Part shown: in pieces, positions 8,779 through 38,537 of the stretch | Layout: each line of letters starts with the position of its first letter | Position numbering within the stretch: position 1 is the first letter of the stretch | Origin: Candidatus Brachybacterium merdavium | GTDB taxonomy: Bacteria > Actinomycetota > Actinomycetes > Actinomycetales > Dermabacteraceae | Direction of reading: 5' to 3' | NCBI GenBank assembly: GCA_019118275.1 | Contig: DWZH01000128.1 | Span: 1-41,629 of the forward strand | Length of the DNA stretch: 41,629 nucleotides | Translations under genes and position numbers: made by a program | The notes under the pieces: model-generated | What the model was told of the DNA's origin: nothing | Database searches by the model: none | Seen by the model: only the letters and a program-made list of their open reading frames with translations

Positions 8779-8784
8779 TAGACT
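8779..8784 (+). promoter_or_regulatory. -10 box TAGACT, leaderless start for MarR gene
   Basis: TAGACT ends 6 nt before ATG 8791, and no ribosome site is present. Transcription should begin at or next to the start codon. Confidence 0.65.
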
Positions 8785-8790
8785 TGAGCC

Positions 8791-9342
8791 ATGCATCTCA
8801 CCCCGCCCGCAGCGCAGACCCGCGAGCCCGACGCCTCCGGACGCGACGAGGTCGACCGCATCATCGAGGGCTGGGCCCGGGCCCGTGGCGACCTCGACAC
8901 CGAGCCCCTGGCGGTGTTCTCCCGCATCTTCCGCCTCGCCCGCCTGCTCGAGGCCGCCCGTCGCGAGGCCTTCTCCGGCGCCGGACTGGAGGGCTGGGAG
9001 TTCGACATGCTCTCGGCCCTCCGCCGCAGCGGTGACGATGCGCTCTCGCCCGGAGCGCTCATGCAGCAGACCCTGGTCACCAGCGGCACCATGACCACCC
9101 GGATCGACAAGCTGGTGGCGCGCTCCCTGGTCAGCAAGTCCCGCAGCCCGCACGATGGGCGGGCGGTCGAGGTGAGGCTGCGTCCCGAGGGGATCGCCCT
9201 GGTCGATGCGGCCATGGAGGCGCTGCTGACTGCCGAGCGCGACCTGCTGGAGCCGCTCGGCGAGCACGGCCGGGGCGAGCTCGCCCGCACCCTGCGCGCC
9301 CTGCTGCTGACTCTCGAGGCCGAGGACTCCGGTGGCAGCTGA
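8791..9342 (+). CDS. MarR-family transcriptional regulator
   Basis: The 183-residue protein has a winged-helix domain: a helical dimerisation stretch (VFSRIFRLARLLEAARREAF), the recognition region LSPGALMQQTLVTSGTMTTRIDKLVARSLVSK, and the wing SRSPHDGRAVEVRLRPEG with the DxR signature typical of MarR proteins. Dimer-forming helices follow at the C-terminus. The start is fixed by the -10 box 6 nt upstream. It precedes the ABC-F gene on the same strand by 144 bp, so co-transcription is possible but unproven. MarR proteins commonly sense phenolic compounds or oxidants; the ligand here is not known. Confidence 0.92.
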   Translation: MHLTPPAAQTREPDASGRDEVDRIIEGWARARGDLDTEPLAVFSRIFRLARLLEAARREAFSGAGLEGWEFDMLSALRRSGDDALSPGALMQQTLVTSGTMTTRIDKLVARSLVSKSRSPHDGRAVEVRLRPEGIALVDAAMEALLTAERDLLEPLGEHGRGELARTLRALLLTLEAEDSGGS

Positions 9343-9415
9343 GCAGGTCCCGACGCTCCGCTGAGCCCCATCCCGGCCAGGCCTGCCGCGCCTGCCGGCA
9401 CGCCGCTCCACGGAC

Positions 9416-9440
9416 CCTCTGCCCGCCACCTCTGCCCGCC
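9416..9440 (+). repeat. Tandem 12-bp repeat in pyrimidine-rich leader before ABC-F gene
   Basis: CCTCTGCCCGCC occurs twice (9416-9427 and 9429-9440), separated by one A, in a pyrimidine-rich stretch upstream of the ABC-F start. No hairpin or attenuator peptide was recognised here. Confidence 0.6.
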
Positions 9441-9486
9441 CTCCCTGCGTTGCCCCTCACCTGCTCCGACCGAAGGATCCCGCTGC

Positions 9487-13951: not shown

Positions 13952-14886
13952 CGCGGCTCCCGGCTCGGCCGCGGGGATGGTGTGGCCACGGCTGCGTCCC
14001 GTCCCGCCCCGGCGGCGGCGATCGCCCGGAACTGCTCGACCTCGAGGGTCTCTCCGCGGGCCCCGGGGTCGACCCCGGCCTCACGCAGGACGTGCTCGGC
14101 GCTCGCCGCGGAGCCGGCCCAGCCCGACAGCGCTGCGCGCAGGGTCTTGCGGCGCTGGGCGAAGGCCGCGTCGACGACGGAGAAGACCCTCTCCCGCTCC
14201 GTGGGCGTGCCCAGCGGCTGCTCATGCCGGTCCAGGCGCACCAGGGCCGAGTCGACGTTGGGCACGGGCCAGAAGATGTGCCGCGAGATCCTGCCGGCGT
14301 GGGAGAGTCGGCCGTACCAGGCGGCCTTGACGCTGGGCGCGCCATAGGTGCGTGAGCCCGGGCCCGCGGTGAGCCGGTCGACGACCTCGGACTGGACCAT
14401 CACCAGCGCGGTGGCCAGCTGCTCGAAGCGCTGCAGGGCGCTGAGCAGGATCGGGGTGGCCACGTTGTAGGGCAGATTCGCGACCAGCGCGGTCGGCTGC
14501 CCGGCGTGCGGGAGGTCGGGCAGCTCGGTGACCTGCAGGGCGTCGGCGTGGATCAGCTGGAAGCGCTCGGCCTCGACGCCGCGGGAGGCGAGGGTGGCCG
14601 GCAGCAGCTGGGCCAGGCCCCGGTCCAGTTCGATCGCGACCACGTCGGCGCCTGCCTCCAGCAGGCCCAGGGTGAGCGAGCCGAGCCCGGGCCCGACCTC
14701 CAGCACGGACTGTCCAGGCTCGATGCCCGCCCGCTGGACGATGGTGCGCACCGTGTTGGGGTCCATCACGAAGTTCTGGCCGCGCTGCTTCGAGGGGCGG
14801 ATCCCGGCTGCCTCGGCGAGTTCACGGACGTCACGGGCGCTCAGCAACATGCCGCTGCTCTGCGTCCAGGAGCACTCGGCGCTCAT
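13948..14886 (-). CDS. rsmA: 16S rRNA (adenine1518-N6/adenine1519-N6)-dimethyltransferase
   Basis: RsmA (KsgA) dimethylates two adjacent adenines in helix 45 of 16S rRNA late in 30S assembly. The 312-residue protein shows KQRGQNFVMDPN (residues 33-44), the SAM loop VLEVGPGLGSLT, the acidic motif AIELDRGL, and catalytic motif IV NLPYNVATP. The C-terminal helical domain contains FAQRRKTLRAAL. The start at 14886 makes an ATGA overlap with tatD; a second ATG at codon 13 (MLLSARDVREL) also matches the family start and could be used. In many actinobacteria rpfB sits between tatD and this gene; here it is absent. Confidence 0.96.
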   Translation of the reverse strand: MSAECSWTQSSGMLLSARDVRELAEAAGIRPSKQRGQNFVMDPNTVRTIVQRAGIEPGQSVLEVGPGLGSLTLGLLEAGADVVAIELDRGLAQLLPATLASRGVEAERFQLIHADALQVTELPDLPHAGQPTALVANLPYNVATPILLSALQRFEQLATALVMVQSEVVDRLTAGPGSRTYGAPSVKAAWYGRLSHAGRISRHIFWPVPNVDSALVRLDRHEQPLGTPTERERVFSVVDAAFAQRRKTLRAALSGWAGSAASAEHVLREAGVDPGARGETLEVEQFRAIAAAGAGRDAAVATPSPRPSREPR

Positions 14887-15881
14887 CCGCGTGCCTCGCC
14901 CGGCCAGCCGTAGACTCGTCGGGTCGTCTCCCGCACTGCGCGGCAGGCCCGCTCGAGAGTCGTTCCGGTGACCTCGGCGATGGTCTGCATGGTCACGGGG
15001 ATCAGGTACGAGGAGTTCGGGCGCCCGCGGTAGGGCACGGGGGTCAGGAAGGGTGCGTCGGTCTCGACCATCACCTGCCCCAGCCCCACCTCCGCGAGCG
15101 CGCCGCGCAGGTTCTCTGCGTTCTTGAAGGTCACGTTGCCGGCGAAGGAGAGGTGGAAGCCGCGGTCGACGCAGGCCCGCGCGAACTCGGCGTCCCCGGA
15201 GAAGCAGTGCAGGACGGTGCGCTCGGGGGCGCCGTCGGCGTCGAGGACCTCGAGGATGTCGCGGTGGGCCTCGCGGTCGTGGATCTGCAGCGGCAGCTCC
15301 AGCTCCTTGGCCAGCGCGATGTGGGCGCGGAAGGAGTCGATCTGGGCGGCGCGGGCCTGCTCGTCCCGGCGGGAGGTGCGGAACCAGTCCAGGCCCGTCT
15401 CCCCCACCACGATCATGCCCGGGCCCCGCAGCAGCTCGGAGACCTCTGCGATGGCCGCATCGAGCCCGATCATCTCGGTGCCGTCGTGCCCGCTGCCGCG
15501 GGCGTGCAGGGCCGCCTCATTGGGGTGGACCGCGACGCCGCCGCGCAGCTGCGGCGGGCAGTTCGGGGAGGCGAGCAGCTCCGCGGTCCAGCGGGTCGCC
15601 TCGAGATCGGAGCCGATCGTGATCAGTGCCTCCACGCCGACGGCCGCCGCCCTCTCGATGTGATCGCCGACGGTCAGCTGCTGGTCACCGTCGGCGAAGT
15701 CGAGGTGGCAGTGGTTGTCGATCACCGGCGAGGGCAGCGGCGGTGGCTGCGGCGGCCAGGACCGATCACGGGACCTGCCGCGTGGATCGATGTCCTCTCG
15801 GGCACGCACGGGCGCGGGGGCGGCGGGATCGGTGGCCTGCCAAGGGCCGGCACCTGACTCGTTCGGCTGCGGGGAGGGCAT
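14883..15881 (-). CDS. tatD: TatD-family metal-dependent DNase
   Basis: TatD enzymes are TIM-barrel metal-dependent hydrolases with 3'-5' exonuclease activity. The 332-residue protein carries [13 protein letters not shown] (first metal His pair), [12 protein letters not shown] (Glu), QIHDREAH (His), VLHCFSGD (His) and VETDAPFL (Asp), so the metal site is complete. A Pro-rich extension of about 50 residues precedes the barrel. The start is ATG 15881, because a TACCAT box ends 6 nt before it and nothing like a ribosome site is present; the longer frame to 16067 is not supported. It heads the tatD-rsmA-ispE operon. Confidence 0.94.
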
Positions 15882-15887
15882 GCGACC

Positions 15888-15893
15888 ATGGTA
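15888..15893 (-). promoter_or_regulatory. -10 box TACCAT, leaderless start for tatD operon
   Basis: Read on the minus strand, TACCAT ends 6 nt before ATG 15881. The upstream sequence is pyrimidine-rich with no Shine-Dalgarno site. Confidence 0.65.
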
Positions 15894-16403: not shown

Positions 16404-17249
16404 TCACGCCCGGCGCTGCTGCAGGGCGAGGTCGTAGAGCTCGCGCGAGGTCACGCCCGGTGCGTGCTGGGCGACCTGCTTGGCGGCGTCCTTGAGCCGC
16501 TCGCCCGCCGATGCGCGCGCGAGCACCTCCTCGATCAGGTCCTCCGCCCGCGCCGTGACGGGCTCGGCGCCGGCCACGACGATCACGATCTCCCCCAGCA
16601 CCTCGGTGGCCGCGGCCCAGTCCGCCAGCTCTCCCAGGCTCCCGCGCAGCACCTGCTCATGGGTCTTGGTCAGCTCGCGGGCCACGGCCGCGGACCGGTC
16701 GGACCCGAAGGCGGCGGCCATCGATGCCAGCGTCGCGGCCGTGCGCCGGGGCGACTCGAAGAAGATCATGGTGCGCTGCTCGGAGACCAGGGGCTGCAGG
16801 GTGCTCGTGCGGCGACCGTCCCGGCGCGGCGGGAACCCCTCGAAGGTGAAGCGGTCCGGCGCTATCCCGGAGGAGGCGAGCGCCGTGAGCACGGCGGAGG
16901 GGCCGGGGATCACGCTCACCTCGTAGCCGGCCGAGGTCGCCGCTCCCACCGCTCGGAAACCGGGGTCCGAGACGACGGGCATCCCCGCATCGGTCACGAT
17001 CAGCACCCGCAGCCCCGCCCCCAGGGCCTCGAGCAGCTGCCCGGTACGCTGGGCCTCGTTGTGCTCGTGGTACGAGACCACCCGCGCGGTGATCTCGACC
17101 TCGAGGTCCGCCGCGAGCCGCGTCAGCCGGCGGGTGTCCTCCGCGGCGATCAGCTCGGCCGAGCCCAGCGCCCGCATCAGGCGCACCGAGGCATCCAGCG
17201 GATTGCCGATCGGAGTGGCGGCGAGGGTCAGGACTCCGGGCTGCAGCAT
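16404..17249 (-). CDS. rsmI: 16S rRNA (cytidine1402-2'-O)-methyltransferase
   Basis: RsmI methylates C1402 of 16S rRNA using SAM. The 281-residue protein carries LAATPIGNPLDAS at the N-terminus, AAEDTRR, IVTDAGMPVVSDPG and VIPGPSAVLTALASSG, then the FEGFPPR and FFESPRR motifs, all in family order. An ATG at 17258 would add three residues, but a TAGCAT box overlaps that codon and ends 7 nt before ATG 17249, so 17249 is the better start for a leaderless mRNA. It is divergent from pmt, as Rv1003 is from Rv1002c. Confidence 0.94.
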   Translation of the reverse strand: MLQPGVLTLAATPIGNPLDASVRLMRALGSAELIAAEDTRRLTRLAADLEVEITARVVSYHEHNEAQRTGQLLEALGAGLRVLIVTDAGMPVVSDPGFRAVGAATSAGYEVSVIPGPSAVLTALASSGIAPDRFTFEGFPPRRDGRRTSTLQPLVSEQRTMIFFESPRRTAATLASMAAAFGSDRSAAVARELTKTHEQVLRGSLGELADWAAATEVLGEIVIVVAGAEPVTARAEDLIEEVLARASAGERLKDAAKQVAQHAPGVTSRELYDLALQQRRA

Positions 17250-17255
17250 GCTCGC

Positions 17256-17328
17256 CATGCTAGGTCAGCGGCCCTCGCCACCCGGCCCTCGCGCCTGGCG
17301 GGCCGAGCCGTGGCGATGACCTAGCATG
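17256..17328. promoter_or_regulatory. Symmetric divergent promoters of rsmI and pmt
   Basis: A perfect 12-bp inverted repeat, CATGCTAGGTCA (17256-17267) and TGACCTAGCATG (17317-17328), bounds this interval. Each arm contains a TAGCAT -10 box facing outward: minus-strand 17262-17257 for rsmI and plus-strand 17322-17327 for pmt. The start codons lie 7 and 6 nt beyond them. No good -35 boxes are visible. Confidence 0.65.
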
Positions 17329-17333
17329 ACCGA

Positions 17334-18935
17334 GTGCAGACGGGGCGGGAAGCGCGACATCGCGCCGACATCGACGAGGAGCCCGATGCCCTGCTGGCCT
17401 CGTACCGGCGCCGCCTGAAGACCTTCGACCTGCCCTCCTCCCGTCTCGCCTGGGCCGGGGCACTGGCGGTGTTCGCCCTGGCGCTGGTGCTGCGCCTGTG
17501 GGGCCTGGGCGGGGTCACCGAGCTCATCTTCGATGAGACCTACTACGTCAAGGACGGATACACGCTCACCCAGGAGGGCGTGGAGATGTCCTGGCCCGAT
17601 GAGCACGATCGCGTCTTCGAGGCCGGGGACGTGGACACCTACGAGGACAGCGGCTCCTACGTGGTCCATCCGAGCCTGGGCAAGTGGGTGATCGGGGCGG
17701 GCATGACGCTGCTGGGTGCCGACAGCCCCTGGGGCTGGCGGATCTCGGTCGCCGTGCTGGGCTCGCTGAGCGTGCTGATGCTGGCTCGCATCGGGCGGCG
17801 TCTGCTGCGCTCGACCATGGCGGGGCTGATCGCCGGTCTGCTGCTGGCGATCGACGGGATGCATCTGGTGCACTCACGCACCAGCCTGCTGGACCTGCCG
17901 CTGACGTTCTTCGCCCTGGCCGGTTTCGGGGCGCTGCTGATCGATCGTGATCGCTTCCGCGAGCGTCTCGCGCTGGAGACCGCGCGCCTGCAGACCGCGG
18001 CCCGGCCCCCCGCTCCGCTCGGTGTCTCGGGAGGGTGGCGTCCCTGGCGGCTGCTGGCGGGGCTGCTGCTGGGGATGGCCTGCTCGGTGAAGTGGTCGGG
18101 GCTGTACTTCCTGGCGGTGTTCGGGATCATGACGGTGCTGTGGGACTGGTGGGCGCGCCGCACCATCGCCCAGCCCCGGTGGTTCGCGGCCGGCCTGGTC
18201 CGCGACGCGATCCCCGCCTTCTTCGCGATGGTGGGCACGGCCCTGGTCACCTATCTCGCGTCCTGGGCGGGCTGGTTCGCCTCGGACAAGGGCTACCTCC
18301 GGCACTGGCTGGAGCACGAGCACGGAAGCACCGGGAGCGGACTGCTGGACGCCCTGGCCTCCCTGTGGCACTACCACGTCCAGGCCTATACCTTCCACAT
18401 CGGCCTGGACTCCGAGCATCCCTATCAGGCCCACCCGCTCGGCTGGCCCCTGATGCTGCGGCCGACGAACTTCTACTACCGCTCCTACGAGTACGGGGAG
18501 CACGGCTGTGAGGTGGCCCGCTGCGCCTCCCACATCCTGTCGGTCGGCAACCCCGTGATCTGGTGGCTGGGGGCGCTGGCGGTGATCGCCACCCTGGTGA
18601 TCGCGATCCTCTGGCGCGACGGTCGGGCCTGGGGCGCGTTGGCGGGCATCGCGGGCGGCTACCTGCCCTGGCTGATGTACTCGGACCGCACCATCTTCAC
18701 CTTCTACGCGGTGGCCTTCGAGCCCTGGATGCTCCTGTGCCTGGCCTTCGTGCTCGGCCTGGTGATCGGACCGCCAGATGCCGAGCCGGACCGGCGCCTG
18801 GCGGGCGGGCTGTTCACGGCCTCGCTGCTGACGCTGATCGTGCTGGTCTCGGCGTTCCTCTGGCCGATCTGGAGCGCGCAGGTGATCGATGTCGAGCAGT
18901 GGCACTGGCGGATGTGGTTGCCGTCCTGGACCTGA
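17334..18935 (+). CDS. pmt: Polyprenyl-phosphate-mannose--protein mannosyltransferase
   Basis: Pmt is a GT39 membrane enzyme that transfers mannose from polyprenyl-phosphate-mannose to Ser/Thr of proteins as they are exported by Sec. The 533-residue protein has about 11 hydrophobic segments. The catalytic acidic pair is in LIFDETYYVKDGY (Asp67-Glu68) in the first outer loop, followed by YVVHPSLGKWVIG. Further family motifs are GMHLVHSRTSLLDLPLTFFA, CSVKWSGLYFL and HPYQAHPLGWPLMLRP. The start is GTG 17334, set by TAGCAT ending 6 nt upstream. Its presence predicts O-mannosylated secreted proteins; the Tat-exported proteins in this window are not typical substrates. Confidence 0.95.
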   Translation: MQTGREARHRADIDEEPDALLASYRRRLKTFDLPSSRLAWAGALAVFALALVLRLWGLGGVTELIFDETYYVKDGYTLTQEGVEMSWPDEHDRVFEAGDVDTYEDSGSYVVHPSLGKWVIGAGMTLLGADSPWGWRISVAVLGSLSVLMLARIGRRLLRSTMAGLIAGLLLAIDGMHLVHSRTSLLDLPLTFFALAGFGALLIDRDRFRERLALETARLQTAARPPAPLGVSGGWRPWRLLAGLLLGMACSVKWSGLYFLAVFGIMTVLWDWWARRTIAQPRWFAAGLVRDAIPAFFAMVGTALVTYLASWAGWFASDKGYLRHWLEHEHGSTGSGLLDALASLWHYHVQAYTFHIGLDSEHPYQAHPLGWPLMLRPTNFYYRSYEYGEHGCEVARCASHILSVGNPVIWWLGALAVIATLVIAILWRDGRAWGALAGIAGGYLPWLMYSDRTIFTFYAVAFEPWMLLCLAFVLGLVIGPPDAEPDRRLAGGLFTASLLTLIVLVSAFLWPIWSAQVIDVEQWHWRMWLPSWT

Positions 18936-19000: not shown

Positions 19001-19006
19001 TACGAT
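19001..19006 (+). promoter_or_regulatory. -10 box TACGAT, leaderless start for malQ
   Basis: TACGAT ends 6 nt before ATG 19013. No ribosome site is present. Confidence 0.65.
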
Positions 19007-19012: not shown

Positions 19013-21133
19013 ATGGCAATGGACTCCTCGGCCCTGCGAGAACTCGCCCGCGACCTCGGGGTCGGCACCGACTACTGGGGCTGGGACGGAAACCGCCGGG
19101 ACGTCGACGACGACACCCTGCGCGCGGTCCTGGCGGGACTGGGCACGCCGGTATCCGGTGACGAGGACATCGCGGCGGTCCGTGCCCGGCGAGAGCGCTC
19201 CCGGTGGGAGGAGACCCTGCCACCGGTCACCGTGCTGCGCCAGGACCGCGAGTCCAGCGTCCCCGTGCATGTCGATCACGGCGAGGCGGTCACGGCCACG
19301 CTGGAGCTGGAGGACGGTGGGGGCCGCGAACTCGCGCAGATCGAGGACTTCACACCTCCCTTCGAGCTCGACGGCCGCCTGCGCGGTCGGGCCCGCTTCG
19401 AGCTGCCGGCCGACCTGCCCCTGGGCTGGCACCGCATCGTCGCCGAGACCGGTGGTCACCGCCACGAGGCCGACGTGGTCGTCACCCCCGCCCGGGTGAC
19501 CGTCCACGAGGGCCTGGGGGCTCGGCGCGCCTTCGGGTTGCAGGCCCAGCTGTACTCGGTGCGATCGCCACGCTCCTGGGGCATCGGCGACCTGGCGGAC
19601 ATGCGCGATCTGGCCGCGATCTCCGGTGCCCGGCACGGAGCCGACTTCCTGCTGGTCAATCCTCTGCACGCCTCGTACCCGACCTCACCGATCGAGCCCT
19701 CCCCTTATCTGCCGACCACCCGACGCTTCATCAGCGCGCTGTACCTGCGCATCGAGGACGTGCCCGAGCACCGTCAGCTGCCCGACCATGCGCGGCAGCG
19801 GATCGCACTGCTGAAGAAGGACGTCGAGGGCTGGAACTCCCGGGTGGACCGGCTCGAGCGGGAAGCGGTGCTCGACGCCAAGATGGACGCCCTCGAGGAG
19901 CTGTTCGCGGTACCCCGCACACCTGCCCGGCAGGCACTCCTGGACGCCTACCGCGAGCGCGAGGGACAGGGCCTGGAAGATTTCGCGACCTGGTCGGCGA
20001 TCGCCGAGCAGGTGCGCGGGGCGCAGGATGACCTGCTCGAGGACCTCGACCCGGCCGTCGTCGAGCAGGCACGCACGGAGCTGGCCGAGCGCATCGAGTT
20101 CCACGCCTGGGTGCAGTGGCTGCTGGACGAGCAGCTGTCTGCCGCCCAGGCCGCGGCCCGTGACGCGGGCATGCGGATCGGGATCATGCACGACCTGGCC
20201 GTCGGCGTGGAGCAGGTCGGGGCCGATGCCTGGCGACTGCAGGAGGTGCTCGCCGAGGGCGTCACCGTCGGTGCCCCAGCCGACCAGTACAACCAGCAGG
20301 GCCAGAACTGGCACCAGCCGCCCTGGCATCCCCAGGCGCTGCGTGATGCCTCCTACAAGCCGTGGCGGGACATGCTGCGCTCACTGATGCGCCACGGCGG
20401 GGCGCTGCGCATCGACCACGTGCTGGGACTGTTCCGGCTGTGGTGGATCCCCGAGGGCAACGAGGCGGCCGACGGCACCTATGTCTTCTACGATCACGAG
20501 GCGATGATCGGGGTGCTGGCCCTGGAGGCCGAGCGCTCCGGGACCCTGGTGGTCGGCGAAGACCTGGGCACCTTCGAGCCCTGGGTGCGCGAGTACCTGT
20601 CCGGCCGCGGGATCCTGGGCACCTCGATCCTGTGGTTCGAGTACGACGAGCAGGGTCGTCCGCTCCGTCCCGAGAGCTACCGCTCGCTGTGCATGGCCTC
20701 GGTCAATACCCACGACCTGCCGCCGACGGCCGGCTATCTGGCCGGGGACCACGTGACCCTGCGCCATCAGCTGGGTCTGCTGGAGCGTCCGCTCGCCGAA
20801 GAACACGAGGCCGATGCCGCCGGACGCGAGGAGGTCCTGGACCTGCTGCGCACCGAGGGCCTGCTCACCGAGGATGCGGACATCGAGCAGACCGTGATCG
20901 CGCTCCACCGGCACCTGGCCCGCACGCCCTCGCTGCTGCTGGGGGTCTCCCTGGTGGACTGCGTGGGCGAACGGCGGATCCAGAACCAGCCGGGCACCGA
21001 CGAGGAGTACGCGAACTGGCGGATCCCCCTCGCCGATGCCGAGCTGGTCACGGTGAGCATCGACGACATCGCCACCGATGAGCGTACCGCGCGCCTGCTG
21101 GCGGCGGTGCGTGAGGGCATCAGCCGGCGGTGA
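19013..21133 (+). CDS. malQ: 4-alpha-glucanotransferase
   Basis: This GH77 amylomaltase moves alpha-1,4-glucan segments between maltodextrins. The 706-residue protein has the roughly 150-residue N-terminal beta domain seen in actinobacterial MalQ, then the barrel with AQLYSVRSPRSWGIGDLADM. The catalytic residues are all present: nucleophile Asp468 in LRIDHVLGLFR, acid/base Glu516 in VVGEDLG, and Asp568 in VNTHDLPPTAGY. The start is ATG 19013, 6 nt after TACGAT; a second ATG lies two codons later. Its last 14 bp overlap the 3' end of the convergent luxS gene. No glycogen or maltose uptake genes lie nearby. Confidence 0.95.
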   Translation: MAMDSSALRELARDLGVGTDYWGWDGNRRDVDDDTLRAVLAGLGTPVSGDEDIAAVRARRERSRWEETLPPVTVLRQDRESSVPVHVDHGEAVTATLELEDGGGRELAQIEDFTPPFELDGRLRGRARFELPADLPLGWHRIVAETGGHRHEADVVVTPARVTVHEGLGARRAFGLQAQLYSVRSPRSWGIGDLADMRDLAAISGARHGADFLLVNPLHASYPTSPIEPSPYLPTTRRFISALYLRIEDVPEHRQLPDHARQRIALLKKDVEGWNSRVDRLEREAVLDAKMDALEELFAVPRTPARQALLDAYREREGQGLEDFATWSAIAEQVRGAQDDLLEDLDPAVVEQARTELAERIEFHAWVQWLLDEQLSAAQAAARDAGMRIGIMHDLAVGVEQVGADAWRLQEVLAEGVTVGAPADQYNQQGQNWHQPPWHPQALRDASYKPWRDMLRSLMRHGGALRIDHVLGLFRLWWIPEGNEAADGTYVFYDHEAMIGVLALEAERSGTLVVGEDLGTFEPWVREYLSGRGILGTSILWFEYDEQGRPLRPESYRSLCMASVNTHDLPPTAGYLAGDHVTLRHQLGLLERPLAEEHEADAAGREEVLDLLRTEGLLTEDADIEQTVIALHRHLARTPSLLLGVSLVDCVGERRIQNQPGTDEEYANWRIPLADAELVTVSIDDIATDERTARLLAAVREGISRR

Positions 21134-22196: not shown

Positions 22197-22202
22197 AGCC
22201 TA
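22197..22202 (-). promoter_or_regulatory. -10 box TAGGCT, leaderless start; contains upstream stop codon
   Basis: TAGGCT on the minus strand ends 6 nt before ATG 22190. Its first three bases are the TAG stop codon of the upstream hydrolase gene, so promoter and stop are superimposed. Confidence 0.6.
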
Positions 22203-23257: not shown

Positions 23258-23263
23258 TAGCCT
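23258..23263 (+). promoter_or_regulatory. -10 box TAGCCT, leaderless start
   Basis: TAGCCT ends 6 nt before ATG 23270. It supports the otherwise unrecognised 112-residue ORF as a real gene. The 207 bp between 23063 and 23269 hold divergent promoters and nothing else that I could recognise. Confidence 0.6.
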
Positions 23264-26480: not shown

Positions 26481-26508
26481 ATGTTAGTCACTAACAGTCA
26501 GGCGTCAA
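26481..26508 (-). promoter_or_regulatory. TetR-module promoter with overlapping operator
   Basis: On the minus strand, TTGACG (26508-26503), a 16-bp spacer and TAACAT (26486-26481) form a good promoter. The perfect 15-bp palindrome TGTTAGTGACTAACA (26496-26482) covers the spacer and most of the -10 box. Repressor bound there would block RNA polymerase. Confidence 0.8.
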
Positions 26509-26553
26509 TCCTCTGCTCGCGAGCCGCCCCCGGGGGGGCGCGGCGTGAGCGAC

Positions 26554-27183
26554 TCAGCCCTCGGCCCGCTCCTCGGCAGCTGCCCGACAAGGGTCGATCA
26601 GCCTCTGCATCCCGGCCTGGAACACTGCGGGATCCGGCAGGACACCTCCGGCCAGCAGGATCAGGCCGGCACCCTGATCCAGTGCGGCCAGCAGTTTGCC
26701 GACCTCGTCGGCAGGCAATGACTCGCCATCGGCCCGGACCCTGTGGGCGAGCTCGCTGTAGCGGTCGAGGACTGAGGTGAGGCGCTCCTGCAGTTGCGGG
26801 GCGAGCTTCTCATCACGGGCCGCACTGGCGATGAACTCCAGCGTCGCCAGCGCGAAACCATGTGTCGCCTCCAGCGAGTACCCCTCCTGCTCCGCCAGAT
26901 CCCGCCCGGTCGAGGCGGGGCGCGTCGGCTGCTCGAACGGGTCCCCCAGACCCGCTCCGGCAAGCTCCAGGTTCTGATCCATGACGGCCAGGAACAAGGC
27001 GGGCTTCCCGTCGAAGTTCGAGTACACGGCGCCCTTGGAGAACCCGGCCTCGCGGGCGATCCGCTCCAGGCTCGCCGCGTGATACCCGCCCTCGGCGAAC
27101 ACCGCACGGGCCGCGAAGATCAGGGCCTCGCGCGTCTGTCGCTGCCGGTCCCGGCGGGAGATGGGGTCGGGAAGCTGTGCCAT
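26554..27183 (-). CDS. TetR-family regulator of the second ABC module
   Basis: The 209-residue protein has an N-terminal helix-turn-helix LERIAREAGFSKGAVYSNFDGKPALF and an all-helical C-terminal domain. The start is ATG 27183 (MAQLPDPISRRDRQRQTR), 6 nt after TATCCT; the frame extends to 27249 but would place the start inside the divergent operator region. It is divergent from an ABC ATPase/permease pair, and the 92-bp gap carries paired GTAT-N4-ATAC palindromes, so it probably represses that pair. Similar regulators control multidrug or antibiotic exporters. Confidence 0.88.
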   Translation of the reverse strand: MAQLPDPISRRDRQRQTREALIFAARAVFAEGGYHAASLERIAREAGFSKGAVYSNFDGKPALFLAVMDQNLELAGAGLGDPFEQPTRPASTGRDLAEQEGYSLEATHGFALATLEFIASAARDEKLAPQLQERLTSVLDRYSELAHRVRADGESLPADEVGKLLAALDQGAGLILLAGGVLPDPAVFQAGMQRLIDPCRAAAEERAEG

Positions 27184-27189
27184 GTCTCC

Positions 27190-27267
27190 AGGATAGAGCC
27201 GTTCGAGCTCTTGACGTACCACCAGTATCCAAATACCGTCAGTATTCACATACCATCAGAATCTGAG
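27190..27267. promoter_or_regulatory. Operator array and divergent promoters of second TetR/ABC module
   Basis: Three 17-bp direct repeats follow one another: TACCACCAGTATCCAAA (27217-27233), TACCGTCAGTATTCACA (27234-27250) and TACCATCAGAATCTGAG (27251-27267). Their junctions create two palindromes of the form GTAT-N4-ATAC (27225-27236 and 27242-27253), 17 bp apart. TTGACG at 27211-27216 lies just before the first repeat and may be the -35 of the plus-strand promoter. TATCCT on the minus strand (27195-27190) serves the TetR gene. Confidence 0.75.
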
Positions 27268-27275
27268 GAGCTGGC

Positions 27276-28277: not shown

Positions 28278-29073
28278 GTCGTCCCTGGCCCCGACCCCCT
28301 CGACCTCGGTCGCCGAGCCCGTGGCACCGATCCAGGTGAGCCTCTGGACGAGCTTCCGGTCGTTGCTGCGCTGGTCGCTCGCGATGACCGGGGCGATGCT
28401 GCCGCTCATCATCGTCGTCCAGGCCATGCTGGCCGCCGGGATCGTGATCGGGTTCGGCTTCCTGATCCCGGACATCACCACGGACAGCGCGCTCTTCCTG
28501 TCGTCCGGCGCGCCGACGATCCTGCTGCTGACCGTCGGTCTGGTCATCGTTCCGCAGGGCGTCGCGCGCGGCCGGGCCTCCGGCGCGCTGGACTACCAGC
28601 GGTCCCTGCCGGTGGCCCGGCCGCTGCTGCTGCTGGTCGACCTGGTGGTATGGGCTCTGATCGCTCTGCCGGGGGTGGCCATCGGGCTCCTCGTGGCGTG
28701 GCTGCACTACGACCTGACGTTCTCCTTCGACTGGCCCGTGCTCATCCTCTCCTCGGTGCTGGTGACGACCATGGCCACGGCTGTGGGATACGCGATCGCG
28801 GTGACGCTGCCGGCGATGCTGGCCCAACTGGCTTCCCAGGTGCTGGTGTTCTTCGTCCTGCTGTTCTCGCCGATCACCTTTCCCGCGGACCAGCTGCCGG
28901 ACTGGTTCCAGAGCCTGCACGCCCTCCTGCCCGTCCAGCCCGCCGCCGATCTCATGCGGGCCGGGATCGCCTCCGGCACCTTCTCGGCCGACGGGCGTGA
29001 CCTGCTGGTCCTGACGATCTGGACCCTGGTCGGCCTGCTGGTCACCACCCGGGCCCTGGTACGGCGGAGATGA
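28270..29073 (+). CDS. ABC-2 type transporter permease, DrrB-like
   Basis: This 267-residue protein has a polar N-terminus of about 45 residues and then six hydrophobic segments, from LAMTGAMLPLIIVVQAMLAAG to LVLTIWTLVGLLVTTRAL. The family-typical stretches VPQGVARGRASGALDYQRSLPVARPLLL and LFSPITFPADQLPDWFQSLHALLPVQPAADLMR identify an ABC-2 exporter permease. ATG 28270 lies within the last codons of the ATPase gene, so translation is coupled. Substrate unknown; drug or lipid-like molecules are typical for this class. Confidence 0.9.
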   Translation: MSESSLAPTPSTSVAEPVAPIQVSLWTSFRSLLRWSLAMTGAMLPLIIVVQAMLAAGIVIGFGFLIPDITTDSALFLSSGAPTILLLTVGLVIVPQGVARGRASGALDYQRSLPVARPLLLLVDLVVWALIALPGVAIGLLVAWLHYDLTFSFDWPVLILSSVLVTTMATAVGYAIAVTLPAMLAQLASQVLVFFVLLFSPITFPADQLPDWFQSLHALLPVQPAADLMRAGIASGTFSADGRDLLVLTIWTLVGLLVTTRALVRRR

Positions 29074-30629: not shown

Positions 30630-31520
30630 TCACCGGTCGGCATCGCGGGCCTCCTGGAGATCATCGAACAGCTCGTCGAGCAGTTCGAGCCGCTCGGGGC
30701 CGCTGCAGGCGACGTAGGCGGGTTGCAGGAAGGCGGGCAGGGACGCATCGCCGTCCCGGCCGGGCCAGGTGCGCACGGATCCGCCGGCGCGCTGAAGGAT
30801 GTGAAAGCCTGCCGCGATGTCCCAGGAGTTGATGGTGGTCAGAGCGGTGGCGTCCGCCCAGCCGGCGGCCACGTAGGCCAGCTCCAGGGCCGCCGAGCCG
30901 AGGTGGCGCACCGCGGAGAACGCGGTATGCATCTGCCGGTTCATGCGCCCGGAGAGCTCCGGGAACTGCTTGCTCATGCGATGGCCTGCGGCTCCGGACA
31001 GGATCAGCGCATCGGCCGGGGCGCGGGTGCAGCGGGGCTCGATCGGGGTGCCGTTGTGCAGGGCGGGCCCGTCGGCCGCGGCGAAGACGCTGCCCAGGAT
31101 CGGAGCGTCGATCACCCCGGCCACCAGCTCGTCATCGACGGCGACGCCGATGGAGATGCAGAACAGCGGCAGCCCGGCCGCGAAATTGCTGGTGCCGTCG
31201 ATGGGGTCGACGTAGAAGCTGACCACGGGTCCGTCGGAGCCGACGGAGGGGCCCTCTGCGGGACGCTCGCCACCCTCTTCGCCGACGATGCGGCAGGTGG
31301 GCAGCAGGCGGCGCAGCTCGGAGACGATGATCTCCTCGCTCTTGCGATCGTGCTCGGTGACGATGTCATGGCTGGAGGTCTTGTACTCGCGGGCCAGGTG
31401 ATCGCGGTCCAGGGCGCGCAGGTAGTCGGCGGCACGGTCGGCGGACGCCAGAGCGATATCGAGCAGTTCGGCCGGGGTGGGGACAGGGTTGGAGGAGGGA
31501 CGTGCAGTGGTGGTGGTCAT
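30630..31520 (-). CDS. Inositol monophosphatase-family phosphatase (HisN/SuhB-like)
   Basis: The 296-residue enzyme has the metal-dependent phosphatase motifs in order: GEEGGE, DPIDGTSNFAAGLPLF, and SWDIAAGFHILQRAGG. Members of this family in actinobacteria act on inositol phosphate, histidinol phosphate (HisN) or other sugar phosphates, and the sequence alone does not choose between them. No histidine or inositol genes are adjacent. The start ATG 31520 is 7 nt after a TATCCT box with no ribosome site. It lies downstream of the oxidase gene on the same strand with its own promoter. Confidence 0.9.
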   Translation of the reverse strand: MTTTTARPSSNPVPTPAELLDIALASADRAADYLRALDRDHLAREYKTSSHDIVTEHDRKSEEIIVSELRRLLPTCRIVGEEGGERPAEGPSVGSDGPVVSFYVDPIDGTSNFAAGLPLFCISIGVAVDDELVAGVIDAPILGSVFAAADGPALHNGTPIEPRCTRAPADALILSGAAGHRMSKQFPELSGRMNRQMHTAFSAVRHLGSAALELAYVAAGWADATALTTINSWDIAAGFHILQRAGGSVRTWPGRDGDASLPAFLQPAYVACSGPERLELLDELFDDLQEARDADR

Positions 31521-31527: not shown

Positions 31528-31533
31528 AGGATA
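31528..31533 (-). promoter_or_regulatory. -10 box TATCCT, leaderless start
   Basis: On the minus strand, TATCCT ends 7 nt before ATG 31520 of the monophosphatase gene. Confidence 0.6.
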
Positions 31534-34109: not shown

Positions 34110-34982
34110 TCAGGCGCGGCGGCGAGCCAGTACTTCGTCGAGGTGCAGATCCGCGGCGGGCGCGAAGTCCTCGTCGACCGCTTCGAGCTCCTCGACGCCT
34201 TCGACCTCGAGCGGGACGGCGGCCAGGCCCACGCTCTCCCGGTGCGCGGCGTGCCGGGTGGCGAGGTCATCGACCTCACCGCGCAGGGTGTAGGCCGGGC
34301 GGGGCACCGGGCGAGGGGTCCACTCGCCGGGGGCGGCGACGTGGCGGGTGGCGCGCTCGGCGGTCTCCTCGAGAGGGGCGCGCTCGACCGGGGCTGAGAG
34401 CGGGGCGGTGATCTCGGCCCGCACGGGCGCTTCGTCGAGGGCGTAGGAGCGCTTCTCGCTCTCGCGCTCACGCTGGTCCTGGCGAGCGAGCGCGGCGGTG
34501 CGGCTGCGGGCTCGGCGCTCGAGCTCGGCACGGCGCAGCCCCACCAGGTAGATCCCCAGGCCCGCGGCCGAGAGCCCGGCCACCCACCACGGGACGGCGG
34601 CCGCGACGGCCAGCACCGTCAGGATGATCGTCCCCACCGCCAGGGCGCTCAGCACGACGGTCAGCAGGCGCCGGGAGCGGGCCCGCTCCTCGAAGGGGTC
34701 GATCCGGGACCCGGGGTCGGTGTGGAACCTGGGACGGGAGGTGGGATCGGCGGGGCGCAGGAGCAGGCGGTCCTGGGACATGGAGGCACTCGCTTCACGG
34801 GTGGGGCGGCGGGAATGGACGACGGCGGACAGGTCACGAGCCGCGGGGGAGATCTCGGTGCGCTCAGCGGCGCGAGCGCGCCCCATCACGTCACGTCGGC
34901 TGGCGGTGCGCGGAAGGGCATAGGCCACCCACAGCAGCAGCAGGAGGGCGAACAGCACGGCCCCGAGGTTGAAGGATTCCAC
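34110..34982 (-). CDS. GlpR-like (Rv0996-like) membrane protein
   Basis: The 290-residue protein has one N-terminal membrane segment (LGAVLFALLLLLWVAYALP), a cytosolic stretch of about 80 residues rich in Arg and Ser, and two adjacent membrane segments (LLTVVLSALAVGTIILTVLA and VPWWVAGLSAAGLGIYLVGL). A long charged cytosolic tail follows, with GEWTPRPVPRPAYTLRGEV. Topology, the WTPxPxPxPxY tail motif and the position beside rimJ match Rv0996. Its Corynebacterium counterpart GlpR is the membrane receptor of the gephyrin-like protein Glp in cell division. The start GTG 34982 is 6 nt after TACTCT; an adjacent GTG lies at 34985. No glp/moeA gene is next to it. Confidence 0.72.
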   Translation of the reverse strand: MESFNLGAVLFALLLLLWVAYALPRTASRRDVMGRARAAERTEISPAARDLSAVVHSRRPTREASASMSQDRLLLRPADPTSRPRFHTDPGSRIDPFEERARSRRLLTVVLSALAVGTIILTVLAVAAAVPWWVAGLSAAGLGIYLVGLRRAELERRARSRTAALARQDQRERESEKRSYALDEAPVRAEITAPLSAPVERAPLEETAERATRHVAAPGEWTPRPVPRPAYTLRGEVDDLATRHAAHRESVGLAAVPLEVEGVEELEAVDEDFAPAADLHLDEVLARRRA

Positions 34983-34988: not shown

Positions 34989-34994
34989 AGAGTA
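34989..34994 (-). promoter_or_regulatory. -10 box TACTCT, leaderless start for GlpR-like gene
   Basis: On the minus strand, TACTCT ends 6 nt before GTG 34982. It gives the GlpR-like, aldolase and oxidase genes a promoter separate from rimJ. Confidence 0.55.
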
Positions 34995-35018
34995 ATGACA
35001 GCCCTGTGATTTACCTGG

Positions 35019-35669
35019 TCACGCCGTGGGCGTGTCGGCGTCGAACTCAGGTGATCCGGGGAGCCGGGCGGTCTCGGACCGCAGTCTGGCCAGCACCCCG
35101 CGGCCGGACTCGTCGGTCCGGACCTCCTCGGCGGTCAGGGCGAACACCAGGTGGTCGCGCCACCCGCCATCGACGTGGATGGCCGAGCGTCGCATCCCCT
35201 CGGCCCGCAGGTGCAGCTTCTCCACCACCCGCAGACTGGATGTGTTCTCCGGGCGCACCGTGACCTCGATGCGGTGCAGGCCGAGCTCGGCGAAGAGGTG
35301 ATCGATCACCAGTGCGGCCGCTCGGGGCACCAGTCCCCTGCCGGCCATCCGGCGGTCGATCCAGTAGCCGATCACCGCCGATCGCAGCGCTCCGTACTGG
35401 ATCGGGCCGGCCGTGATCTGCCCGGCCAGCCGTCCGTCCACCGTGATCACCAGGGGAAGCTGCAGCCCTTGCCGGGCCTGGCTCTCGTTCCAGCGCCGCA
35501 CCGTCGAGAACGGCGGCGGCGTGCCGCGGAGGGGGTCGCTCGCATCCCAGGGGCGCAGCCAGTCGCGATTGCGGGCCCGCAGGGCCTCGAACTCGCGGCG
35601 GTCGCGGCGCCGCAAGGGCCGCAGCACGAGCTCCGAGTCGCGCAGGGTGAGCGGCCAGACATGAACCAT
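35019..35669 (-). CDS. rimJ: GNAT N-acetyltransferase, RimJ-like
   Basis: The 216-residue protein is a RimJ/RimL-type GNAT acetyltransferase. Its features are LRPLRRRDRREFEALRARNRDWLRPWDASDP at the N-terminus, IGYWIDRRMAGRGLVPRAAALVIDHLF with the acetyl-CoA loop (MAGRGL), and RIEVTVRPENTSSLRVVEKLHLRAEGMRR. RimJ acetylates protein N-termini, ribosomal S5 in E. coli; the target in actinobacteria is not settled. The start ATG 35669 is 6 nt after TACGAT. It lies 33 bp upstream of the GlpR-like gene, as Rv0995 precedes Rv0996, and is divergent from the cyclo-ligase gene. Confidence 0.9.
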   Translation of the reverse strand: MVHVWPLTLRDSELVLRPLRRRDRREFEALRARNRDWLRPWDASDPLRGTPPPFSTVRRWNESQARQGLQLPLVITVDGRLAGQITAGPIQYGALRSAVIGYWIDRRMAGRGLVPRAAALVIDHLFAELGLHRIEVTVRPENTSSLRVVEKLHLRAEGMRRSAIHVDGGWRDHLVFALTAEEVRTDESGRGVLARLRSETARLPGSPEFDADTPTA

Positions 35670-35675: not shown

Positions 35676-35681
35676 ATCGTA
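35676..35681 (-). promoter_or_regulatory. -10 box TACGAT, leaderless start for rimJ
   Basis: On the minus strand, TACGAT ends 6 nt before ATG 35669. The same hexamer and spacing occur before malQ. Confidence 0.65.
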
Positions 35682-35737
35682 GACGCGTCGCGGTCCGCGG
35701 GCGACACGCGCGGGCCCGCTTGTGGGACCGTGGGGCC

Positions 35738-36893: not shown

Positions 36894-36910
36894 GTGACCC
36901 GTAGCGTCAC
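36894..36910 (+). promoter_or_regulatory. SAF gene promoter with overlapping inverted repeat
   Basis: A TAGCGT -10 box (36902-36907) ends 6 nt before ATG 36914. It is embedded in GTGAC-N7-GTCAC (36894-36898 and 36906-36910), so a regulator binding the repeat would cover the -10. Confidence 0.55.
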
Positions 36911-36913
36911 GGC

Positions 36914-37561
36914 ATGCTCACCCGGATCCGTTCCCAGCTGCCGCTGTGGCGCCGTGCCCTGCGCCGCCGGCGCCGCACCTTGGCGCTGCTGACGGGCGCA
37001 CTGCTGGTCGCGGCCCTGCTCCCCTCCGCCCTGCCCGCATTGGTGCCTGCCGCAGCGGCCTCCACGACGGTGGTGGTCGCCGCCGCCGAGCTGCCGATCG
37101 GTACCGAGCTGGAGGCCGAGCATCTTCGGACCGTCCGCGTCGCCGAGAGCCTCGCCCCGCCTCGCGCGGTGGATGGTCCTGAGCAGCTCACGGGTCGGCG
37201 CACCATGACGAAGGTGCCGGAAGGGGTGCCGGTGGTGCCGGGGATGCTCGAGGGGGAGGCCGCCGCAGTGGTACCCGAGGGGTCGTCGATGATGGCGATC
37301 AGCGCTCCCGCCGTGCTGGCCCCGCATCTCGTCCCCGGGACCGCGGTCGAGATCCTGTCCTCCACCCCGGAGGCGGGCAGCACCCGCCACATTCGCGCCC
37401 GGGTGGTCGAGGTGGCGCCCCGTGAGCCGGGGGCCGGGTCCGGTCTGGCGGGGCCCACGGCCGGCGAGACGGTGGTGCTCGTGTCCGTCGACCCCTCTGG
37501 CGCGCGTGAGCTGGCGCACGCGACGCATGAAGGGTGGGTGCAGATCACCATCGTCGGCTGA
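36914..37561 (+). CDS. SAF-domain (CpaB/flagellar-chaperone-like) membrane-anchored protein
   Basis: The 215-residue protein has a very basic N-terminus (RRALRRRRRT), one membrane segment (LALLTGALLVAALLPSALPALV), and then an extracytoplasmic SAF domain beginning TTVVVAAAELPIGTELEAEHLRTV and containing LTGRRTMTKVPEGVPV. A second beta-rich part (VEILSSTPEAGSTRHIRARVVEV) is like the RcpC/CpaB type. CpaB proteins serve Tad pilus assembly, but no tad genes are near, and this position matches the conserved hypothetical Rv0990c. Function is unproven. The start is set by the leaderless promoter 6 nt upstream. Confidence 0.82.
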   Translation: MLTRIRSQLPLWRRALRRRRRTLALLTGALLVAALLPSALPALVPAAAASTTVVVAAAELPIGTELEAEHLRTVRVAESLAPPRAVDGPEQLTGRRTMTKVPEGVPVVPGMLEGEAAAVVPEGSSMMAISAPAVLAPHLVPGTAVEILSSTPEAGSTRHIRARVVEVAPREPGAGSGLAGPTAGETVVLVSVDPSGARELAHATHEGWVQITIVG

Positions 37562-37625
37562 TGTCTGCGGAGCCCGCCCGCCGTCCCCGCATCCGTACGG
37601 CTCCCGCTCCCCCATGACGATGGGA

Positions 37626-37631
37626 TACCGT
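37626..37631 (+). promoter_or_regulatory. -10 box TACCGT, leaderless GTG start for mutY
   Basis: TACCGT ends 6 nt before GTG 37638. ATG codons upstream (37614 and 37620) lie before this box and lack a ribosome site. Confidence 0.6.
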
Positions 37632-37637
37632 CCTCGG

Positions 37638-38537
37638 GTGTCCCAGTCCTTCTCCGCCGTCTCCGAGGCGACGCTCAGCGACGACGCCATCGACTCGGTG
37701 ATCAGCTGGTTCGCCGGAAACGGCCGCGACCTGCCCTGGCGCCACGACGTCCCACCCTGGGCGATCCTGGTCTCCGAGGTGATGCTCCAGCAGACCCCGG
37801 TGGTGCGGGTGCTCCCCCGCTGGACGGAGTGGATGCGGCGCTGGCCGACGCCGGCCGACCTCGCCGCAGCGCCCACCGCGGAGGTGCTGCGCCTGTGGGA
37901 TCGGCTCGGCTATCCGCGCCGTGCCCTGCGCCTGCAGGAATGCGCCCGGGCGATCGTGCGGGACCACGGGGGCGAGGTCCCCCGCGATTCACAGCAACTG
38001 CTGGCCCTGCCCGGCATCGGCGAGTACACCGCGGCGGCCGTGACCGCCTTCGCCCACCATGAGCGCGCCGTCGTGGTCGACACCAACATCCGCCGCGTCC
38101 TGGCGCGGGCGGTGCACGGGCAGGAGCTGCCCGCCCCGTCCATCTCCGCGGCGGAACGGGCCGCGGCCGCCCGGGTCCTGCCCCCGGAGCGGGAGCGCTC
38201 GGTGGCCTGGAACCAGTCGGTGATGGAGCTCGGTGCCCTGGTGTGCACGGCCCGCGGCCCGCGCTGCGACCGCTGCCCGCTGGCCGCCCGATGCGCCTGG
38301 GTCACCGCCGGGCGACCGGAGGGCGCGGCGCGGTCCCGGCGGCGCCAGCCGTTCGAGGGCACCGACCGGCAGATGCGGGGGATGATCATGGCCCGGCTGC
38401 GCCGGGACGGGCACGCGACGCTGACCGAGCTGCTCGAGCTGGACCCCGGGGATCCGCAGCGGGTGCGGCGCTGCACCGCCTCCCTGGCGGCCGACGGGCT
38501 CGCTCGCCGTGAGGGCGAGGTCCTTCAGCTGCCCTGA
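37638..38537 (+). CDS. mutY: A/G-specific adenine glycosylase
   Basis: MutY removes adenine mispaired with 8-oxoguanine. The 299-residue protein has WFAGNGRDLPWRHDVPPWAILVSEVMLQQTPV with the catalytic Glu in SEVMLQQT, the helix-hairpin-helix LLALPGIGEYTAAAV, the catalytic Asp in VVDTNIRRVL, and a complete iron-sulfur ligand set C-x6-C-x2-C-x5-C in VCTARGPRCDRCPLAARCAW. The C-terminal NUDIX-like domain of E. coli MutY is absent; a short winged-helix-like end (GHATLTELLELDPGDPQRVRR) replaces it, as is usual in actinobacteria. Start GTG 37638 is set by the promoter. Its last 13 bp overlap the convergent ArgA-like gene. Confidence 0.94.
   Translation: MSQSFSAVSEATLSDDAIDSVISWFAGNGRDLPWRHDVPPWAILVSEVMLQQTPVVRVLPRWTEWMRRWPTPADLAAAPTAEVLRLWDRLGYPRRALRLQECARAIVRDHGGEVPRDSQQLLALPGIGEYTAAAVTAFAHHERAVVVDTNIRRVLARAVHGQELPAPSISAAERAAAARVLPPERERSVAWNQSVMELGALVCTARGPRCDRCPLAARCAWVTAGRPEGAARSRRRQPFEGTDRQMRGMIMARLRRDGHATLTELLELDPGDPQRVRRCTASLAADGLARREGEVLQLP

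What the first reader, a model, noticed from the sequence alone, without database searches (positions are those of the whole stretch)
8779..37640. At least 14 genes show TANNNT placed 6-7 nt before the start codon, predicting leaderless mRNAs
The boxes and starts are: TAGACT/8791, TACCAT/15881, TAGCAT/17249, TAGCAT/17334, TACGAT/19013, TAGGCT/22190, TAGCCT/23270, TAACAT/26473, TATCCT/27183, TATCCT/31520, TACTCT/34982, TACGAT/35669, TAGCGT/36914 and TACCGT/37638. Eleven have exactly 6 nt between box and start, three have 7; four starts are GTG. None has a convincing Shine-Dalgarno site. If A and T are each about 15% of bases, three fixed matches at a given offset would be expected roughly 0.3% of the time, so the pattern is far from chance. 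Leaderless mRNAs are known in actinobacteria; the density here is what stands out. Two weaker cases (GAGACT/8070 and GACCGT/35738) share the spacing.
Basis: partly seen in the sequence, partly recalled or inferred. Interest (0 to 1): 0.75.

Follow-up and report, generated by a model that had tools for sequence, protein, structure and literature searches.

The report
Ordinary leaderless-gene promoters in Brachybacterium
Many genes in this bacterium carry a promoter box so close to the start codon that the messenger RNA should begin with the start codon itself; this looks real but is a known habit of actinobacteria, although this stretch has more such genes than average.

Summary
All 14 boxes are present at the stated places, strands and spacings (11 at 6 nt, 3 at 7 nt, four GTG). 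In a 1.24-Mb sample of the same genome (34%, window included), TANNNT peaks sharply at spacer 6-7, mostly in genes that are not operon-internal. For 13 of the 14 genes the box and spacing are kept in 116 of 116 gene-relative pairs examined. The 14th, 37638, is kept in 1 of 10. The leaderless reading is well supported as a prediction: spacers 6-7, C enriched at -1, Shine-Dalgarno motifs rare even after allowing for the space the box takes. No RNA 5' ends were available, so it is not shown.

It is not new in kind. Zheng et al. 2011 (PMC3160421) described TANNNT about 12 bp upstream of starts as the mark of leaderless genes, around 20% of actinobacterial genes. The rest of my sample has 124 of 963 called genes (13%); the window, 13 of 39, is a local high (nominal p about 0.001), noticed after the fact.

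One refinement: the two "weaker" cases (8070, 35738) have an extended -10 (TGN before GANNNT), and TGN-VANNNT is itself enriched at spacer 6-7.

The parts
8779..8784 (+). TAGACT -10 box, 6 nt before ATG 8791 (MarR-family regulator, 8791-9342)
   Evidence: kept in 9 of 9 relatives; Pfam MarR
15888..15893 (-). TACCAT -10 box, 6 nt before ATG 15881 (TatD DNase, 14883-15881)
   Evidence: 10 of 10; Pfam TatD_DNase; the first gene call chose 15881, the second 15725
17257..17262 (-). TAGCAT -10 box, 7 nt before ATG 17249 (RsmI-like methyltransferase, 16404-17249)
   Evidence: 9 of 9; at the aligned start in 13 of 14 Brachybacterium-like loci, 135 nt upstream in frame in the 14th; Pfam TP_methylase
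17322..17327 (+). TAGCAT -10 box, 6 nt before GTG 17334 (protein O-mannosyltransferase, 17334-18935), divergent from RsmI
   Evidence: 10 of 10; Pfam PMT
19001..19006 (+). TACGAT -10 box, 6 nt before ATG 19013 (4-alpha-glucanotransferase MalQ, 19013-21133)
   Evidence: 10 of 10; my caller preferred 18968 or 18992, relatives support 19013
22197..22202 (-). TAGGCT -10 box, 6 nt before ATG 22190 (LysR substrate-binding-domain protein, 21645-22190)
   Evidence: 9 of 9; starts about 10 nt downstream of a co-directional called gene
23258..23263 (+). TAGCCT -10 box, 6 nt before ATG 23270 (112-aa ORF, 23270-23608)
   Evidence: 5 of 5; no Pfam or NCBIfam match at E 0.001
26481..26486 (-). TAACAT -10 box, 7 nt before GTG 26473 (TetR-family regulator, 25919-26473); overlaps a GTTAGTCACTAAC palindrome
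   Evidence: 7 of 7 homologues 37-55% identical, the best 7 of 11 loci fetched
27190..27195 (-). TATCCT -10 box, 6 nt before ATG 27183 (TetR-family regulator, 26554-27183), divergent from an ABC transporter gene
   Evidence: 7 of 7 relatives 54-80% identical, the best 7 of 11 loci fetched
31528..31533 (-). TATCCT -10 box, 7 nt before ATG 31520 (inositol monophosphatase family, 30630-31520)
   Evidence: 10 of 10; Pfam
34989..34994 (-). TACTCT -10 box, 6 nt before GTG 34982 (protein with weak similarity to divisome protein SepX/GlpR, 34110-34982)
   Evidence: 10 of 10; NCBIfam match below cut-off; my caller chose 34985
35676..35681 (-). TACGAT -10 box, 6 nt before ATG 35669 (GNAT acetyltransferase, 35019-35669)
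   Evidence: 10 of 10; Pfam
36902..36907 (+). TAGCGT -10 box, 6 nt before ATG 36914 (SAF-domain, CpaB-like protein, 36914-37561)
   Evidence: 7 of 7, 10 of 10 with looser limits for three rows; Pfam SAF, CpaB below cut-off
37626..37631 (+). TACCGT box, 6 nt before GTG 37638 (MutY-like glycosylase, 37638-38537); least supported of the 14
   Evidence: kept in only 1 of 10 relatives
8053..8063 (+).
   Evidence: place; by eye TGTGN-(G/C)ANNNT with 6-nt spacing in 9 of 9 relatives
35721..35731 (+).
   Evidence: place; by eye TGN-(G/C)ANNNT at 6 or 7 nt in 9 of 10 relatives, the tenth (G012) not resolved

Best explanation
The boxes are sigma-70-type -10 promoter elements (TANNNT, no detectable -35) placed so that RNA polymerase starts transcription on the first base of the start codon. 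The mRNAs are therefore leaderless: they begin with AUG or GUG, lack a Shine-Dalgarno site, and are presumably translated by ribosomes that engage the 5' start codon directly. Shown by sequence: the boxes, their fixed spacing, enrichment outside operons, rarity of Shine-Dalgarno motifs and conservation in the genus. Inferred: the 5' end position, the sigma factor and the mode of translation. In the sample outside the window about 13% of called genes have such a box, in line with actinobacteria generally.
For: Boxes confirmed. Spacer peak in 712 non-operon genes: 82 at 6 and 44 at 7, against 1 to 7 at each other spacer. Called-start counts at 6-7: 92 of 1,002, against 1 to 5 at six control spacer pairs. 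Outside the window 10 of 281 operon-internal against 70 of 288 divergent genes. Conserved in 116 of 116 gene-relative pairs for 13 genes; ten control genes of the window gave 0 of 65, eight of them having any relative. C at -1; SD motifs 4 of 136, below the 85 to 116 of 850 expected from geometry. Enriched in all 24 genus genomes searched, ratio to the reversed control 2.3 to 8.1. Literature: TANNNT about 12 bp upstream marks leaderless genes, around 20% in Actinobacteria (PMC3160421); in M. tuberculosis TANNNT, no -35 motif, and 26% of genes with a primary TSS leaderless (PMC3898074).
Against: No RNA or ribosome data. A TSS 1 to 3 nt off the start codon cannot be excluded by sequence. 37638 is not kept in 9 of 10 relatives. 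22190 lies about 10 nt behind a co-directional called gene. The share of ATG starts is not higher than in SD-led genes (105 of 136 against 332 of 453, p = 0.37). Much of the raw SD contrast (4 of 136 against 453 of 850) comes from the box taking up the space. Outside the genus rsmI boxes spread over spacers 5 to 10. Genes may have further promoters.
Confidence: 0.92

Rival explanations
1. The boxes are -10 elements, but the true 5' ends lie a few bases upstream of or inside the codon, giving very short leaders or slightly internal starts rather than exact leaderless mRNAs.
For: Spacer 7 makes up 44 of 126 non-operon hits, so the discriminator length is not fixed; M. tuberculosis leaderless genes were defined as within 5 bp of the start (PMC3898074). 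Outside the genus rsmI boxes also occur at spacers 5 and 8 to 10.
Against: In this genome spacers 5 and 8 are at background (1 and 3 hits). C at -1 and purine at +1 fit an exact start.
Confidence: 0.06
2. Chance matches: AT-rich hexamers found by flexible reading of about 40 genes, with start codons chosen to fit.
Against: Control spacers give 1 to 5 per 1,002 genes; a caller blind to upstream motifs picks 11 of the 14 starts itself; 116 of 116 pairs conserved for 13 genes.
Confidence: 0.01
3. The window is a special leaderless hot spot with a common function, not just an ordinary sample of the genome.
For: 13 of 39 called genes against 124 of 963 elsewhere (Fisher p = 0.0011). The maximum over 150 overlapping windows of equal size on six other contigs was 9.
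Against: The stretch was noticed because of its density; counts elsewhere run from 0 to 9 per window. The encoded domains are of unrelated kinds (methyltransferase, mannosyltransferase, glucanotransferase, regulators, glycosylase). Eleven of the genes keep their boxes at the corresponding place in relatives, so any cluster is largely inherited gene order.
Confidence: 0.05

Closest known systems
TA-led (leaderless) genes of Actinobacteria, Zheng et al. 2011 (PMC3160421; passages and section 7 seen)
   Same: TANNNT with little information in the middle three positions, first T about 12 bp upstream of the start; read as leaderless; around 20% of genes; high-GC actinobacteria
   Different: No difference in kind found. 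The main text holds no word beginning with Brachybacterium (it is absent from the hits); I did not see its genome list
Leaderless transcriptome of Mycobacterium tuberculosis and M. smegmatis (PMC3898074, PMC4633059; abstracts and passages seen)
   Same: TANNNT -10, no -35 consensus, C at -1, purine at +1, ATG or GTG at the 5' end
   Different: There 5' ends and translation were measured; here they are predicted. The passages discuss TGN before TANNNT; here TGN goes mainly with VANNNT boxes
Extended -10 promoters (TGN upstream of the -10; recalled, and mentioned in PMC3898074)
   Same: TG one base before the hexamer, here with a weak hexamer as at 8070 and 35738
   Different: Here the element is placed for a leaderless start and goes with a non-T first base of the hexamer

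Membership tests
Actinobacterial TANNNT leaderless genes | TANNNT with first T 12-13 bp before the start codon | tested here: met
   14 of 14
Actinobacterial TANNNT leaderless genes | Signal enriched at this offset genome-wide beyond chance | tested here: met
   34% of the genome sampled; whole-genome pattern 249 against 91 reversed
Actinobacterial TANNNT leaderless genes | No Shine-Dalgarno site | tested here: met
   4 of 136 TANNNT genes have GGAG, GAGG or AGGA at -16 to -5; 116 or 85 of 850 expected from geometry with an imposed box at spacer 6 or 7
Actinobacterial TANNNT leaderless genes | Found at promoter-bearing genes, rarely inside operons | tested here: met
   Outside the window 10 of 281 operon-internal against 70 of 288 divergent; within the window one of 9 operon-class genes (22190) has it
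Actinobacterial TANNNT leaderless genes | Box and spacing conserved between species | tested here: met
   116 of 116 pairs for 13 genes; not met for 37638, 1 of 10
Actinobacterial TANNNT leaderless genes | mRNA 5' end on the start codon | not testable with these tools
   No RNA data; C at -1 is indirect
Actinobacterial TANNNT leaderless genes | Translation starts at the 5' RTG | not testable with these tools
   No ribosome profiling or N-terminal peptides
Extended -10 promoter (8070 and 35738) | TG one base upstream of the -10 hexamer | tested here: met
   TGC-GAGACT and TGG-GACCGT; TGN-VANNNT 29 hits at spacer 6-7 in 712 genes, about 3.5 expected from other spacers (worked out by hand)

The most novel reading that the evidence does not exclude
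In Brachybacterium, and perhaps other actinobacteria, leaderless promoters come in two exchangeable forms: plain TANNNT, and TGN plus a hexamer whose first base need not be T (TGN-VANNNT), both fixed 6-7 nt before the start codon. Surveys that look only for TANNNT would then miss roughly a fifth as many leaderless genes again. Some rsmI orthologues in other families may use the extended form.
Probability: 0.5. Interest if true: 0.3.

Novelty: new member of a known kind. Interest (0 to 1): 0.2.

Why it matters
It supports from sequence that the leaderless habit is strong in Brachybacterium, for which the two paper searches I ran showed no relevant report. It points to start codons that a plain gene caller can misplace (19013, 34982, 15881). 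The two-form -10 refinement, if right, would help start prediction and counts of leaderless genes. It does not change the general picture of actinobacterial translation.

Tried and rejected
Chance and start-codon picking were tested with shifted spacers and rejected. A -35 element was looked for in 79 aligned boxes: no informative column, and best matches of at least 4 of 6 to TTGACA were 11 against about 5.3 in shuffles, too weak to claim. ATG preference was looked for and is not seen against SD-led genes (105 of 136 against 332 of 453). The Shine-Dalgarno contrast first looked larger than it is; a box-imposing control showed that much of it is geometry. A shared special operator for the rsmI/PMT pair (both TAGCAT) was considered; TAGCAT is 2 of 79 boxes in the first sample, but without binding data I leave it. 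A window-specific function was considered and given little weight. Strict TGTGN-GANNNT had 1 hit in the 1.24-Mb sample; over 38 genus genomes TGTGNGANNNTN6ATG gives 142 against 19 reversed, but many of the 142 are orthologues of the two window genes and so not independent. The phylum sample (149 genomes) was read but not tallied; ratios there run from about 0.5 to above 8.

Limits and dropped rows. The gene caller is home-made and misses genes (nothing was called at 1-2788). Its second round moved the TatD start to 15725, so that gene is not among the 13 counted in the window. Twelve genes near a stretch end were dropped; the margin was 30 bases. In one search hits beginning beyond query residue 55 or within 100 bases of a stretch end were left out, and three SAF rows had a wider search range. 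For each TetR gene I used the best 7 of 11 non-own loci. The middle of the printout was cut; SAF, GNAT and MutY rows were seen. In one search one rsmI fragment (L123) was dropped; one locus counted there (L069) has its box 135 nt upstream of the aligned start.
Full report
What is there. The window is contig C106 of a 3.66-Mb draft genome in 137 contigs. Its RsmI-like protein is closest (79% identity) to that of Brachybacterium massiliense, and the next hits are mostly Brachybacterium, so I take it as Brachybacterium or a very near relative; no record named the organism. All 14 boxes and starts of the finding are present as written: 11 with 6 nt, 3 with 7 nt (17249, 26473, 31520), four GTG.

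Is it more than chance? A home-made gene caller that ignores upstream sequence was trained on 61 sequences, 883 kb with the window. It chose 11 of the 14 starts itself; the others were 19013 (it chose 18968), 34982 (it chose 34985) and 23270 (not called). On a larger sample, 58 sequences and 1.24 Mb with 1,002 called genes, called starts have TANNNT at spacer 6-7 in 92 cases, against 1 to 5 at six other spacer pairs. Allowing near-equal alternative starts raises this to 137, against 3 to 11 at the controls. In the 712 genes not operon-internal the counts are 82 at spacer 6 and 44 at spacer 7, against 1 to 7 at each other spacer from 0 to 25. By class, outside the window: divergent 70 of 288, co-directional with more than 30 nt gap 40 of 328, operon-internal 10 of 281, edge 4 of 66. 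Over the whole genome TANNNT-N6-ATG occurs 249 times, its reversed control 91 times. In the 24 genus genomes (own included) the ratio to the control is 2.3 to 8.1, in 14 genomes of other families of the order 1.1 to 5.0.

Conservation. Stretches syntenic with the window were fetched from ten genus relatives, and further homologues for the two TetR genes from whole-genome searches (best 7 of 11 loci used for each). For 13 of the 14 genes every pair examined, 116 of 116, has an in-frame start near the aligned position with TANNNT at 6 or 7 nt (99 at 6, 17 at 7). In the same sequences other spacers from 0 to 20 gave 19 hits in all. An earlier, stricter run gave 99 of 99 for 11 genes, and ten control genes of the window gave 0 of 65. 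Around several boxes the sequence has mostly diverged, for example upstream of rsmI, so the box itself appears to be under selection. The MutY-like gene at 37638 is the exception, 1 of 10. In several relatives the upstream neighbourhood differs, so I count it as unsupported rather than false.

Beyond the genus, rsmI keeps the habit unevenly. Of 14 Brachybacterium-like loci, 13 have TANNNT at 6-7 nt at the aligned start and the 14th (L069) has it 135 nt upstream in frame. Of 55 other actinobacterial loci, 17 have it at 6-7 nt; eight control spacer pairs gave 0 to 6, and spacers 5 and 8 gave 5 each, so the spacing is looser there. Of 10 loci of other phyla, 1 has it. A further 5 of the 55, including two labelled Streptomyces, have a TGN-VANNNT box at 6-7 nt; other single spacers gave 0 to 2, so this is weak evidence.

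How it most likely works. A hexamer ending 6 nt before the start codon puts the canonical +1 on the first base of that codon (established sigma-70 numbering, recalled). C stands at -1 in 98 of 136 TANNNT genes, against 237 of 453 SD-led and 191 of 401 other genes. Shine-Dalgarno-like motifs at -16 to -5 are found in 4 of the 136 and in 453 of 850 other genes. Part of this is geometry: imposing a box on the 850 leaves 116 (spacer 6) or 85 (spacer 7), so about 10 to 14% would be expected and 3% is seen. ATG is not commoner than in SD-led genes (105 of 136 against 332 of 453). No -35 signal was seen. So the polymerase should start at the A or G of the start codon and the ribosome should take the 5' RTG directly. 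[quoted passage not shown] The 5' ends and the translation here are inferred.

The two weaker cases. GAGACT/8070 and GACCGT/35738 both have TG one base upstream of the hexamer, TGTGC-GAGACT and TGTGG-GACCGT. By eye, TGTGN-(G/C)ANNNT stands 6 nt before the 8070 start in 9 of 9 relatives (8 with GA, 1 with CA), and TGN-(G/C)ANNNT stands 6 or 7 nt before the 35738 start in 9 of 10, the tenth not resolved. In the sample, TGN followed by GANNNT, CANNNT or AANNNT has 14, 11 and 4 hits at spacer 6-7 in non-operon genes, while other spacers predict about 3.5 in all; TGN-TANNNT has only 5. Over 38 genus genomes TGTGNGANNNTN6ATG gives 142 matches against 19 reversed, many of them orthologues of these two genes. 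An extended -10 that makes up for a non-T first base is the natural reading. On these counts it adds roughly a fifth to the TANNNT leaderless genes.

Density. The window has 13 of 39 called genes, the rest of the sample 124 of 963 (Fisher p = 0.0011). In 150 overlapping windows of the same length on six other contigs the counts were 0 to 9. So it is a local high, but it was picked for being one, and the background is uneven.

What is known. Zheng et al. 2011 found TANNNT about 12 bp upstream of starts in bacteria, read it as the -10 box of leaderless genes, and reported such genes in 86 of 89 actinobacterial genomes at around 20% (PMC3160421; passages, section 7). Cortes et al. 2013 reported TANNNT, no -35 motif, C at -1 and 26% leaderless among genes with a primary TSS in M. 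tuberculosis (PMC3898074; passages). [quoted passage not shown] passages). A search for Brachybacterium with leaderless gave one paper, on cheese-board microbiota, seen in the listing only. A wider search found 368 papers, of which I saw the first 10 and none was on this. This library lacks most subscription journals. I therefore call the finding a correct prediction of a known kind in a genus where I saw no report. My confidence was lowered slightly (0.93 to 0.92) and the odds of the two-form reading from 0.55 to 0.5 after the geometry control and the recount of the rsmI loci.

Noticed in passing
window 26481-26495: The TAACAT box of the TetR gene at 26473 overlaps the palindrome GTTAGTCACTAAC, a likely operator; several homologues show TTAGT/ACTAA-type repeats near the same place, suggesting autorepression by covering the -10. 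Inference only.
   Followed up: partly
window 27184-27275: Between the TetR gene (27183, -) and the ABC transporter gene (27276, +) lie two GTATNNNNATAC repeats (27225-27236, 27242-27253) and, for the + gene, a TTGACG-N17-TACCGT promoter-like pair with a GAGGAG site before its start, so the regulator looks leaderless and its presumed target leadered.
   Followed up: partly
window 34995-35018: Between the GNAT stop codon and the box of the SepX/GlpR-like gene at 34982, a non-coding block reading roughly CCNGGNNAATCACANNNNTGTCAT (minus strand) is kept with few changes in the ten relatives seen, which suggests a transcription-factor site.
   Followed up: no
window 17250-17333: The divergent rsmI and PMT starts, 84 nt apart, carry the same CTAGCATG around their boxes, also in most Brachybacterium loci shown; possible common regulation.
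   Followed up: no
window 23270-23608: A 112-aa ORF with no Pfam or NCBIfam match is kept with its leaderless box in 5 of 5 relatives where it was found, of ten looked at; probably a real small gene of unknown function.
   Followed up: partly
window 24451-29073: Two regulator-plus-ABC-transporter groups with lowish coding scores; of four genes tested (25919, 26554, 27276, 28270) only one had any hit in the ten relatives' stretches, at 36% identity; perhaps an acquired insert.
   Followed up: no
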